DNA of 64,000 nt from Dictyoglomus sp. (lineage in GTDB: Bacteria; Dictyoglomota; Dictyoglomia; Dictyoglomales; Dictyoglomaceae), in the NCBI GenBank assembly GCA_025060475.1, contig JANXBZ010000005.1, forward strand, positions 1 to 64,000, given 5' to 3'. Numbering within the stretch: position 1 is the stretch's first letter; the number at the start of each line of letters is the position of its first letter. This document shows positions 10,165-13,414 of the stretch, piece after piece. The notes below the pieces were generated by a model. That model saw only the letters and a list, made by a program, of their open reading frames with translations. It had not been told where the DNA came from and searched no databases. The translations under genes and the position numbers were made by a program.

Positions 10165-11001
10165 ATGAAAAATGAAAATAAAGAGAATTATTTTGAAAAT
10201 TTTTTAGAAAAGTTAGAAGAAATTCGACTTAAAAGAACTCTGAGGTTAAGAGGTTATACTATTACCGAAAGCTGTTCTCTAAATAGGGTAATACTACCGA
10301 AGAAGCAAGATATAAAAATATGGGAGACATATTATCAACTTCTTTCTCACTATCGTTTTAGAAGACTTATTAGTGATTTGATTCAAGTTAAAACCTCAGG
10401 CTTTATTGATTTAAGCTTATTATTAACGAAATGGACATGGGAAGAAATTTCTAATTATTTTAAATTTCTTGAAGAAGCAGGTATTCTTGAAAGAATAGGG
10501 GATAAATTTTATTTTTTGTATGATTTAATCGATAATTTTGGAGAAACTTTAGAGTGGTTTGTAGCACAAATTCTCAAAAGAGAGTTTTCTATTCCTGCCT
10601 TTTGGGGAGTTAAGCTTTTAGGTATTTCTGGAGGAGGAGATTTTGATGTACTAGGATTAGTAGAAAATTATCTTTTGTATATTGAATGTAAAACTAGTCC
10701 TCCTAATAATATTAGATTGAGAGATCTTTGGGAATTTTTAAGAAGAAGAGAAGTTTTAGGCTCTCAACTTACTATATTTCTTATAGATACTACTCTAAAA
10801 GTAGAGAGAAATATTGTCGATAATGTTAAACTACTCTTAGATAGAAGATTTTCTCCATATAAGAAAAATGAGGTAATAAAAGAAAAAGAGGGAGTATATT
10901 TTTTCTCTCCTAACCTTTTTATACTTCAGAGTAAAGGAGATTTTATAGTCAATTTTCAACATGTTTTTAGAAAATTTCTTGAGAAAGTTTTTAACTACTA
11001 A
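10165..11001 (+). CDS. Uncharacterised protein with PD-(D/E)XK nuclease-like motif
   Basis: 278 aa; I do not recognise a named family. Residues ~75-120 look like a small winged-helix region (EEISNYFKFLEEAGILERIG). The C-terminal half has the arrangement expected for a PD-(D/E)XK nuclease core: E130 in a helix, then GGGDFDVLG with D159 and D161, then a hydrophobic strand ending in IECKTSPP with E174 and K176. Its stop overlaps the rarA start (TAATG), so the two are probably translated together, and a role in DNA repair or replication with RarA is a reasonable inference. No function is established. Confidence 0.65.
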   Translation: MKNENKENYFENFLEKLEEIRLKRTLRLRGYTITESCSLNRVILPKKQDIKIWETYYQLLSHYRFRRLISDLIQVKTSGFIDLSLLLTKWTWEEISNYFKFLEEAGILERIGDKFYFLYDLIDNFGETLEWFVAQILKREFSIPAFWGVKLLGISGGGDFDVLGLVENYLLYIECKTSPPNNIRLRDLWEFLRRREVLGSQLTIFLIDTTLKVERNIVDNVKLLLDRRFSPYKKNEVIKEKEGVYFFSPNLFILQSKGDFIVNFQHVFRKFLEKVFNY

Positions 11002-12296
11002 TGGAACAAGAAAAATTTTTTAAAGAAGATAGAAAATACCAACCCCTTGCTTATAGAATGAGACCTCGAAATTTCGAGGAATTGGTAGGATTATCGGAGA
11101 TAATTGGTGAAAATTCTTTTTTAAGGAGAACTGTAGAAAAGGGTTATCTTCCCTCGCTTATAATATATGGTCCTCCTGGATCTGGAAAAACTACTCTCTC
11201 TATTCTTCTAGCTCAAGCTATAGAGGCTGATTTTATAGAATTAAATGCAGCAATTATAGGGGTTTCTGAAATAAGAGAAGCCCTTCAAAGAGCAAAAAGA
11301 AATATGGAGATTTTCAAAAAGAGTACAGTTATCTTTTTAGATGAAATCCACCATTTTAATAAGCTTCAACAGGATGTTCTCTTACCTTGGATAGAAAAGG
11401 GTTTAGTCATTCTTATTGGAGCAACGACAGAAAACCCATTTTTTACTTTGAATAATACCCTTTTATCTAGATGTAGATTACTAGAACTGAAGCCTCTTTC
11501 TAATGATGATATTAGAATAATTATAAGAAGAGCTCTTCAAGATAAAGAAAGAGGTCTAGGTAATCAAAATATTATTTTAGAAGATTTAGCAGAAGAAGAA
11601 ATAATAAGATTTTCAAATGGAGACGCAAGAGTTGCATTAAATACCCTAGAACTTGCATCGTTTCTTGCTATTCCTGATTCTGAGGGCAGAAATGTAATCA
11701 ATCTTTCAGTAATTGAGGATGTGATTCAAAAAAGAATTTTTAGATATGATCAAAGAGGAGATGAGCATTATCATGTTATCTCTGCTTTTATTAAAAGTAT
11801 AAGAGGTTCAGATCCAGATGCAGCGGTGTATTGGCTTTCAAGAATGCTTCTTTCAGGAGAAGATCCAAGATTTATAGCAAGACGTCTTCTTATTCATGCT
11901 GCTGAGGATATTGGAATGGCAGATCCTTTTGCTTTAGTGATAGCCCAAGCTGCAGCTTTTGCAGTAGAGTTTGTAGGAATGCCTGAAGCACAAATTCCTT
12001 TAACTACTGCCACAATATATTTAGCTTGTGCCTCTAAAAGTAACAGTTCTGTGGTTGCTATAAATAAAGCTAATGAATATCTTAGAAAACATGGTCCTTC
12101 TCCTGTTCCTTTACATCTGAGAAGTTCATCCTTTAAAGAATATAAATATCCTCATGATTATCCTGGTCATTTTGTGGAACAAAATTATCTTCCTGAGAAT
12201 GTGAGGGAAAGATTCTATTATCCTTCGGAAGAAGGAAAAGAGAAAATAATAAGAGAAAGATTGAAGAAGTTATGGGGAAAAAGATTCGAAGAATAA
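11001..12296 (+). CDS. rarA: Replication-associated recombination protein A (RarA/MgsA AAA ATPase)
   Basis: 431 aa. It has an AAA+ module with Walker A GPPGSGKTT (57-65) and Walker B IFLDEIHHF (111-119), the sensor-1 ATTENP near 140-145, then the MgsA C-terminal helical domain with the conserved DPDAAVYWLSRML segment. RarA/MgsA is a tetrameric ATPase acting at stalled replication forks with SSB. It is translationally coupled to the upstream putative nuclease and overlaps the downstream gene by 25 bases. Confidence 0.95.
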   Translation: MEQEKFFKEDRKYQPLAYRMRPRNFEELVGLSEIIGENSFLRRTVEKGYLPSLIIYGPPGSGKTTLSILLAQAIEADFIELNAAIIGVSEIREALQRAKRNMEIFKKSTVIFLDEIHHFNKLQQDVLLPWIEKGLVILIGATTENPFFTLNNTLLSRCRLLELKPLSNDDIRIIIRRALQDKERGLGNQNIILEDLAEEEIIRFSNGDARVALNTLELASFLAIPDSEGRNVINLSVIEDVIQKRIFRYDQRGDEHYHVISAFIKSIRGSDPDAAVYWLSRMLLSGEDPRFIARRLLIHAAEDIGMADPFALVIAQAAAFAVEFVGMPEAQIPLTTATIYLACASKSNSSVVAINKANEYLRKHGPSPVPLHLRSSSFKEYKYPHDYPGHFVEQNYLPENVRERFYYPSEEGKEKIIRERLKKLWGKRFEE

Positions 12297-13414
12297 TTTT
12301 TTTATTAGCATTTTTACCTCTATTATTTTGTTGTAGAAAAAATGAAATTTTAAAAAAAATGGATGAATCTATAATAGAAAACAAAAAAGAAACTACTATT
12401 AATCTTGAAATAAATGTTTCTTACGAGATTTTTTCCGAATTTCAGAGGAAATATTCTCAGGATATAAGAAAAATAAATGTAAAAGTAAGAGAGGAGGTTT
12501 TTTCGAATTATAACTTAATTTGGAACCAATATGAAGTATATTGGCATAAGTCTTGGGAAGAATTAAAAAATAGCCTGAGGTATGAATTTTCGAGAAGAAA
12601 TTTAAAATATAAACTAAAAAAGTTAAGGAATTATGATGAAATTATAGTCTTTTATTCTTATTCTTTACCTACTTTTAAAAAAGTTGATTTAAGGCTTTTT
12701 AATTTTTATTTTCCAATTACGTTAAAAAAAGAGATAAAAAAACCTCTTCTTGCTATTGTTGTGGATGATATTACTGAGAAAAATTACTGGACTGATAGAC
12801 TTTTCTCTCTTTCATATACATTAAATTTGGCAATAATACCCACCTCGAAGATAGGAGAATTGCTGAAAGAAACAAAGAGAAAAAATTGGTATGCAATTAT
12901 ACATATGCCTATGGAGTCTATAAGTTATCCTAAAGATGCAAAATATCTTGTATCTTATTCTATATTGCAAGGAATGAATAAAGAAGAAATAGAAAAAATA
13001 GTTAATAAAAGCATGGAATATTTCGAAGATTACCCTATTGAGGGAATAAACAATCACATGGGATCTAAGGTTACTTCTGATCCTGAAACTATGAGAAATT
13101 TATTTGAAGTATTAAAGGAAAAGAAATTATTTTTTCTAGATAGTAAAACTTCGCATAAAAGTGTTGGGAAAAGAATAGCAAAAGAGGTTGATATTCCCTT
13201 TTTGGAAAATGATTTGTTTTTAGATCATGAGAATGATAAAGAGATGATCAGAAAAAGGTTTCAACAAAGTATTGATATTGCGAAAAAGAAAGGTAAAGCT
13301 ATTGTTATTTGTCATATCAGGCCAAAGACTATTGAAGTTATGGAAGAATTAGAAAAAGAAAATTTTTTTAGAGATGTGGAATTGGTAAAACTTAAAGACT
13401 TATTAAATGAATAA
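12272..13414 (+). CDS. Divergent polysaccharide deacetylase family lipoprotein
   Basis: 380 aa. The N-terminus is a lipoprotein-type signal: basic residues, a hydrophobic stretch (8-18) and a lipobox-like LLFCC near 17-21. After a ~120-residue linker the C-terminal domain (~145-378) matches the divergent polysaccharide deacetylase family (DUF610): VVDDI near 152, IIHMP near 194, the INNHMGSKVTSDP motif near 251-263, DSKTSH near 287-292 and ICHIRP near 346. The family is thought to act on cell-wall or envelope polysaccharide, but activity is unproven. The 25-base overlap with rarA puts an envelope protein inside a DNA-repair operon, which is probably economical packing. Confidence 0.82.
   Translation: MGKKIRRIIFLLAFLPLLFCCRKNEILKKMDESIIENKKETTINLEINVSYEIFSEFQRKYSQDIRKINVKVREEVFSNYNLIWNQYEVYWHKSWEELKNSLRYEFSRRNLKYKLKKLRNYDEIIVFYSYSLPTFKKVDLRLFNFYFPITLKKEIKKPLLAIVVDDITEKNYWTDRLFSLSYTLNLAIIPTSKIGELLKETKRKNWYAIIHMPMESISYPKDAKYLVSYSILQGMNKEEIEKIVNKSMEYFEDYPIEGINNHMGSKVTSDPETMRNLFEVLKEKKLFFLDSKTSHKSVGKRIAKEVDIPFLENDLFLDHENDKEMIRKRFQQSIDIAKKKGKAIVICHIRPKTIEVMEELEKENFFRDVELVKLKDLLNE

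What the first reader, a model, noticed from the sequence alone, without database searches (positions are those of the whole stretch)
10165..11001. Putative PD-(D/E)XK nuclease translationally coupled to RarA
The protein has a winged-helix-like middle and a D159-x-D161 ... E174-x-K176 core, and its stop overlaps the rarA start. A nuclease tied to the fork-remodelling ATPase RarA would be a plausible new repair pair. I know of no named family with this layout.
Basis: inference. Interest (0 to 1): 0.6.

Follow-up and report, generated by a model that had tools for sequence, protein, structure and literature searches.

The report
CARF-less Card1/Can2-type nuclease
The gene next to rarA encodes what looks like an intact metal-dependent nuclease that matches, residue for residue in its active site, the cutting half of CRISPR-triggered enzymes (Card1/Can2) but has no trigger domain; its link to RarA holds only within one bacterial phylum.

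Summary
The 278-aa protein at 10165-11001 (Dictyoglomaceae) models confidently as an N-terminal helix, a winged helix and a PD-(D/E)XK core. D159, D161, E174, K176 and also E130 are invariant in 97 homologues. Foldseek hits with E<=0.001 to solved structures are all CARF-wHTH-PD-(D/E)XK proteins of the Can2/Cdn1/VC1899 type, for two independent models. E130/D159/D161/E174/K176 match the published Cdn1 active site E274/E308/D310/E323/K325, the last four with identical spacing (2-13-2). Profile alignment to a CRISPR III CARF4-PDDEXK protein starts where that protein's CARF domain ends. So this is a stand-alone, CARF-less relative of the Card1/Can2 nuclease module, without a Pfam or NCBIfam entry. 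Relatives occur in Nitrospirota, Thermodesulfobacteriota, Myxococcota and others, as chromosomal genes, with no match in the phage, plasmid or viral collections searched.

The "repair pair with RarA" is not supported: PSP1-X-rarA order occurs only in the seven Dictyoglomota genomes, inside a collinear block, and in none of 90 other loci; stop/start overlap is ordinary here (22 of 53 junctions). Best reading: a metal-dependent endonuclease not gated by cyclic oligoadenylate, probably for genome maintenance. Activity and role are untested.

The parts
10165..11001 (+). CARF-less Card1/Can2-type PD-(D/E)XK nuclease, 278 aa
   Evidence: ORF; AF2 model; Foldseek PDB; 97-member alignment
10171..10248 (+). 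N-terminal long helix (residues 3-28), low to moderate confidence, possible dimerisation helix (inference)
   Evidence: DSSP on the model; a long N-terminal helix also in the Nitrospirota model
10351..10515 (+). winged helix-turn-helix (residues 63-117): helices 63-75, 83-86, 92-104, wing strands 108-111/114-117; Y63 and R66 invariant
10540..10929 (+). PD-(D/E)XK nuclease domain (residues 126-255)
   Evidence: alpha-beta-beta-beta-alpha-beta order
10552..10554 (+). E130, motif-I glutamate in helix A; counterpart of Cdn1 E274
   Evidence: 100% in 97 sequences
10639..10647 (+). D159-x-D161; counterpart of Cdn1 E308/D310 and SthCan2 E276/D278
   Evidence: 100% in 97 sequences
10684..10692 (+). 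E174-x-K176; counterpart of Cdn1 E323/K325 and TsuCan2 (Card1) E302/K304
   Evidence: 100% in 97 sequences
11001..12296 (+). rarA (AAA+ ATPase with MgsA_C), 1-nt overlap with the nuclease gene; adjacent only in Dictyoglomota
   Evidence: Pfam PF12002 and PF16193
9281..10156 (+). PSP1-domain gene immediately upstream (8-nt gap); adjacent only in Dictyoglomota
   Evidence: Pfam PF04468

Best explanation
The gene encodes a stand-alone nuclease homologous to the C-terminal half (linker, winged helix, PD-(D/E)XK domain) of the CARF4-type CRISPR effectors Card1/Can2/Cdn1, without the CARF sensor domain. By analogy it works as a metal-dependent endonuclease: E130, D159, D161 and E174 bind Mg2+/Mn2+, and K176 completes the active site, to cut phosphodiester bonds of DNA or single-stranded RNA between two nuclease domains of a dimer. 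Because it has no CARF domain, cyclic oligoadenylate should not gate it; the N-terminal helix may substitute as dimeriser, and control would come from substrate structure or from a partner. Most likely it serves chromosome (or RNA) maintenance rather than CRISPR defence. Shown computationally: fold, homology, conserved active site, lack of CARF, chromosomal single-copy distribution. Inferred: activity, metal, dimer, substrate, role. RarA linkage is a Dictyoglomota gene-order trait. (Confidence about 0.85 for the nuclease identity, about 0.55 for maintenance over defence.)
For: AF2 models of the window protein (pLDDT 89.6) and of a Nitrospirota member (pLDDT 93.7). In Foldseek against the PDB every hit with E<=0.001 is Cdn1, VC1899 or Can2 (best 3.3e-7; best 1.8e-5). 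Cdn1 active site E274/E308/D310/E323/K325 (PMC12825302) matches E130/D159/D161/E174/K176; the spacing 2-13-2 is the same and holds in 97 of 97 family members. The published nuclease-dead pairs of SthCan2 (E276A/D278A) and TsuCan2 (E302A/K304A) fall on the same positions (PMC7969007). hhalign of the family profile to L138 covers family residues 19-183 against L138 142-291, probability 89%, pairwise E 2e-6. L138 is a PADLOC CARF4--CARF_PDDEXK protein (E 2e-123) flanked by a Cmr6-like gene and a reverse transcriptase gene. PADLOC hits CARF4--CARF_PDDEXK and Csx1 models with several members (best 3e-4 for the window, 4e-6 for another). Not found in phages, plasmids or viral contigs; 13 X-positive genomes of >=90% completeness have no Cas10 over cut-off.
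Against: No activity data. Whole-model TM-scores to Can2/Cdn1 are only about 0.4-0.5, because the domains sit differently or the similarity is remote. The sequence E-values to Card1 are weak (Pfam PF09002 not reached). The maintenance role rests on distribution and neighbours only; presence is patchy (24 of 386 genomes broadly; 14 of 31 in one Nitrospirota family), which is not typical of an essential repair enzyme. Six of the seven Dictyoglomota genomes do carry a Cas10 elsewhere.
Confidence: 0.7

Rival explanations
1. One reading: the nuclease is a functional partner of RarA at stalled forks, with translational coupling setting their ratio.
For: PSP1-X-rarA order in all seven Dictyoglomota genomes of two genera, with short X/rarA overlaps; holB in the same operon; RarA has a proposed role in post-replication gap repair (PMC8735627).
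Against: None of 90 loci outside Dictyoglomota has rarA near the gene. Within Dictyoglomota the whole tmk-holB-PSP1-X-rarA-rny block is collinear, and overlapping junctions are ordinary here, 22 of 53.
Confidence: 0.12
2. An orphan defence effector: a Card1/Can2 derivative that lost CARF and acts in anti-phage defence, triggered by something other than cyclic oligoadenylate.
For: Closest relatives are CRISPR ancillary nucleases; patchy presence; most Dictyoglomota genomes have Cas10 elsewhere.
Against: Not in phage, plasmid or viral collections; frequent neighbours are housekeeping genes (UPF0047, LpxK, DUF116, PolX, HPPK) with no recurrent cas gene recognised; 13 good X-positive genomes have no Cas10 over cut-off.
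Confidence: 0.2
3. The protein is mainly a ribonuclease for RNA turnover, as Cdn1 is active on ssRNA only.
For: Cdn1, the best Foldseek hit for the window model, cleaves ssRNA and not DNA (PMC12825302); Can2 cleaves both (PMC7969007).
Against: No RNA-specific neighbour or domain was seen; substrate cannot be told from sequence.
Confidence: 0.25
4. A catalytically inactive DNA-binding protein that only resembles a nuclease.
For: None specific; VC1899, a close fold relative, was inactive in vitro despite intact residues (PMC7969007).
Against: Five active-site residues 100% conserved in 97 sequences with fixed spacing.
Confidence: 0.05

Closest known systems
Can2 / Card1 (CARF4-type CRISPR type III ancillary nucleases; PDB 7bdv, 8bao, 8q3z)
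   Same: Winged helix plus PD-(D/E)XK nuclease; G-x-x-L-E helix-A motif; (E/D)-x-D then E-x-K with identical 2-13-2 spacing; the post-CARF linker aligns too
   Different: No CARF domain, so no cOA site; not tied to CRISPR loci; D instead of E at position 159; own signature motifs (ExKxSPP, R194, D208-T209-x-L211)
Cdn1 (PDB 9u49, 8z4i)
   Same: Best Foldseek hit for the window model (E 3.3e-7); complete five-residue active site matches
VC1899 (PDB 1xmx, DUF1887)
   Same: Fold and layout of the C-terminal half
   Different: Has a CARF-like domain; this family has none
NucS/EndoMS and Hjc-type nucleases (PDB 2vld, 4tkd)
   Same: PD-(D/E)XK core; weak Foldseek hits; EndoMS was named the closest dsDNA-bound homologue of the Can2 nuclease domain (PMC7969007)
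   Different: Different N-terminal domains; much weaker match

Membership tests
PD-(D/E)XK nuclease superfamily | alpha-beta-beta-beta-alpha-beta core | tested here: met
   H126-141, b145-152, b158-166, b169-176, H185-198, b202-207; same order in a Nitrospirota member
PD-(D/E)XK nuclease superfamily | acidic residues and E-x-K on adjacent strands, conserved | tested here: met
   D159, D161, E174, K176, E130 invariant in 97 sequences; search seeds included the E130 and E174/K176 motifs but not D159/D161
PD-(D/E)XK nuclease superfamily | metal-dependent nuclease activity | not testable with these tools
   needs biochemistry
Card1/Can2 (CARF-wHTH-PD-(D/E)XK) | wHTH plus nuclease module with (E/D)-x-D...E-x-K | tested here: met
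   Foldseek, hhalign, residue mapping
Card1/Can2 (CARF-wHTH-PD-(D/E)XK) | N-terminal CARF domain | tested here: not met
   Only about 60 residues precede the wHTH, helices and a short strand; hhalign begins at L138 residue 142, after its CARF
Card1/Can2 (CARF-wHTH-PD-(D/E)XK) | association with type III CRISPR | tested here: not met
   No recurrent cas neighbour recognised; 13 X-positive genomes lack Cas10 over cut-off; Dictyoglomota do have Cas10 elsewhere
Card1/Can2 (CARF-wHTH-PD-(D/E)XK) | activation by cyclic oligoadenylate | not testable with these tools
   no CARF domain to bind it; needs biochemistry
Pfam PF09002 Card1_endonuc | score over the curated cut-off | tested here: not met
   No hit for the window protein; best member E 0.16; no PF09002 match in any Dictyoglomota genome
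RarA-linked repair pair | conserved adjacency with rarA in several phyla | tested here: not met
   Only the 7 Dictyoglomota genomes; 0 of 90 other loci
RarA-linked repair pair | physical or functional interaction | not testable with these tools
   needs experiment

The most novel reading that the evidence does not exclude
The CARF-free family is an old chromosomal nuclease from which the CRISPR Card1/Can2 effectors were made by adding a CARF sensor, so that a genome-maintenance enzyme explains where these CRISPR effectors came from. The reverse, loss of CARF from a CRISPR effector, is equally open.
Probability: 0.2. Interest if true: 0.75.

Novelty: new variant of a known kind. Interest (0 to 1): 0.5.

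Why it matters
Card1/Can2 are known as nucleases held off until cyclic oligoadenylate binds their CARF domain. A widespread relative with an intact active site and no CARF raises direct questions: what keeps it in check, what it cuts, and whether CRISPR recruited or released this module. It is small and comes from thermophiles, so it is readily testable.

Tried and rejected
Pfam and NCBIfam scans of the window protein: no family. Sequence search of the PDB with the protein and with two profiles: only chance-level hits. First genome-contig scan with the single protein: nothing, because too few conserved peptides were used. RarA partnership: rejected as a general feature by neighbours. Translational coupling as special evidence: rejected, since 22 of 53 junctions overlap. 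CRISPR effector with CARF: rejected for lack of the domain. Mobile or phage gene: no support. nSTAND_NTPase4 (best E 2e-4, four members) and DUF4143 (weak): not pursued; the DUF4143 hits lie over the nuclease domain and look like superfamily noise. A hydrophobic-repeat test for a coiled coil in the N-terminal helix was not done. The quick tree groups the Dictyoglomota copies with a few unplaced lineages, but long branches meet there, so no claim on transfer or origin is made from it.

Full report
OBSERVATION. The ORF at 10165-11001 (+) encodes 278 aa; its TAA stop shares one base with the rarA start at 11001. The neighbour 11001-12296 is RarA (Pfam MgsA_C 3e-61, AAA_assoc_2), and the gene before is a PSP1-domain protein. 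The window lies in a 1.72-Mb, 81-contig genome. Named relatives of the same family place it in Dictyoglomaceae; two complete same-family genomes have the sizes that I recall for D. turgidum and D. thermophilum (the identification by size is from memory).

FAMILY. No Pfam or NCBIfam model matches the window protein. Homologues were found in all seven Dictyoglomota genomes held and more widely: 24 of 386 genomes and 171 loci in genome contigs, of which 80 were kept. They come from Nitrospirota, Thermodesulfobacteriota, Myxococcota, Methylomirabilota, Auribacterota, Deferribacterota and others (phyla as the submitters' titles give them). In a 97-sequence alignment Y63, R66, G126, E130, W131, G157, G158, D159, D161, E174, K176, P179, P180, R194, D208, T209 and L211 are invariant. 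Caution: the genome-contig scan was seeded with the E130-W131 and E174-x-K176-x-S-P-P motifs, so those are partly ascertained in that subset; D159 and D161 were not seeds, and the loci were found without such seeds.

STRUCTURE. AlphaFold2 on the 9-sequence alignment gives pLDDT 89.6 and pTM 0.88, with a long N-terminal helix, a winged helix at 63-117 and the alpha-beta-beta-beta-alpha-beta core at 126-207. In the hairpin b158-166/b169-176 the register inferred from the strand limits places D161 opposite E174 and D159 opposite K176, as an active site needs. A Nitrospirota member with 33 sequences gives the same layout at pLDDT 93.7. For both models the Foldseek hits in the PDB with E<=0.001 are all Can2, Cdn1 or VC1899 chains, i.e. 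CARF proteins with a PD-(D/E)XK domain. Hits in the viral library are weak and mixed.

ACTIVE SITE. In Cdn1 the Mg2+ site is built by E274, E308, D310, E323 and K325, and E308A, D310A or E323A abolish activity (PMC12825302). The window protein has E130, D159, D161, E174 and K176: the last four have the same 2-13-2 spacing, found in all 97 members. SthCan2 E276A/D278A and TsuCan2 E302A/K304A, both designed nuclease-dead variants, fall on the same positions (PMC7969007). Card1-type proteins fetched with PF09002 show ExD...ExK with the same spacing and a G-x-W-(L/F)-E helix in place of G-E-T-L-E-W.

NO CARF. A profile-profile comparison with L138 aligned family residues 19-183 to L138 residues 142-291 (probability 89%, pairwise E 2e-6). 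L138 is a CARF4--CARF_PDDEXK protein (PADLOC E 2e-123) flanked by a Cmr6-like gene and a reverse transcriptase gene, so it is very probably a genuine CRISPR effector. The match begins just after its CARF domain. The window protein has only about 60 residues ahead of its winged helix. CARF proteins as a class combine CARF, wHTH and effector domains (PMC4012209); this family is that layout without the first part.

CONTEXT. PSP1-X-rarA is found in all seven Dictyoglomota genomes, but genes from tmk to rny are collinear there, and 22 of 53 same-strand junctions in the window overlap, so adjacency and overlap are weak evidence. None of 90 loci outside the phylum has rarA or this PSP1 gene nearby (some of those contigs are short). 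Elsewhere the gene follows UPF0047 (23 loci, 17 within 600 bp), DUF116 (9) or LpxK (15), or lies beside PolX (8, in at least two phyla). It is single copy, patchy (14 of 31 genomes of one Nitrospirota family; 37 of 148 in the phylum sample, two of them marginal), and unmatched in the phage, plasmid and viral collections. Thirteen X-positive genomes of at least 90% completeness have no Csm1/Cmr2-type Cas10 over cut-off, though six of seven Dictyoglomota genomes do (divergent Cas10 could be missed); in the window's genome the Cas10 is on another contig (C8).

EXPLANATION. A CARF-less Card1/Can2-type endonuclease, metal-dependent by homology, without cyclic-oligoadenylate gating, more likely for chromosome or RNA maintenance than for CRISPR defence. 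Fold, homology, residue conservation and lack of CARF are shown by computation; activity, substrate, dimer and role are inferred. I found no paper on a CARF-less Card1/Can2 family in the literature searched, but that library is partial.

VERDICT. The proposed RarA pair does not generalise. Novelty: new variant of a known kind.

Noticed in passing
L131, L128, L098, L117, L046, L094 (Nitrospirota-type), L100, L105 (Thermodesulfobacteriota/Pseudomonadota bins): A DNA polymerase X with PHP domain lies next to or near the nuclease gene in 8 loci of at least two phyla, in both orientations; a possible repair link that reaches across phyla, unlike rarA.
   Followed up: partly
L133, L108, L124, L130, L084 and others: UPF0047 (YjbQ) gene upstream in the same orientation in 23 loci, often with LpxK before it; an unexplained lineage-wide pairing in Nitrospirota.
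   Followed up: partly
L138:1201-2376 (-): A CARF4--CARF_PDDEXK effector sits between a Cmr6-like gene and a reverse transcriptase gene and is the closest sequence relative seen with a CARF domain.
   Followed up: partly
G000 contig C8:111203-112990 (outside the window): The window's genome carries a Cmr2-type Cas10, so type III CRISPR signalling may exist in the same cell although the nuclease gene is on another contig.
   Followed up: no
window 12272-13414: Divergent polysaccharide deacetylase gene overlaps the end of rarA by 25 bases in the same direction.
   Followed up: no
G554 C1:822144-823031: The homologue in this genome matches in two separate pieces with a gap between them.
   Followed up: no
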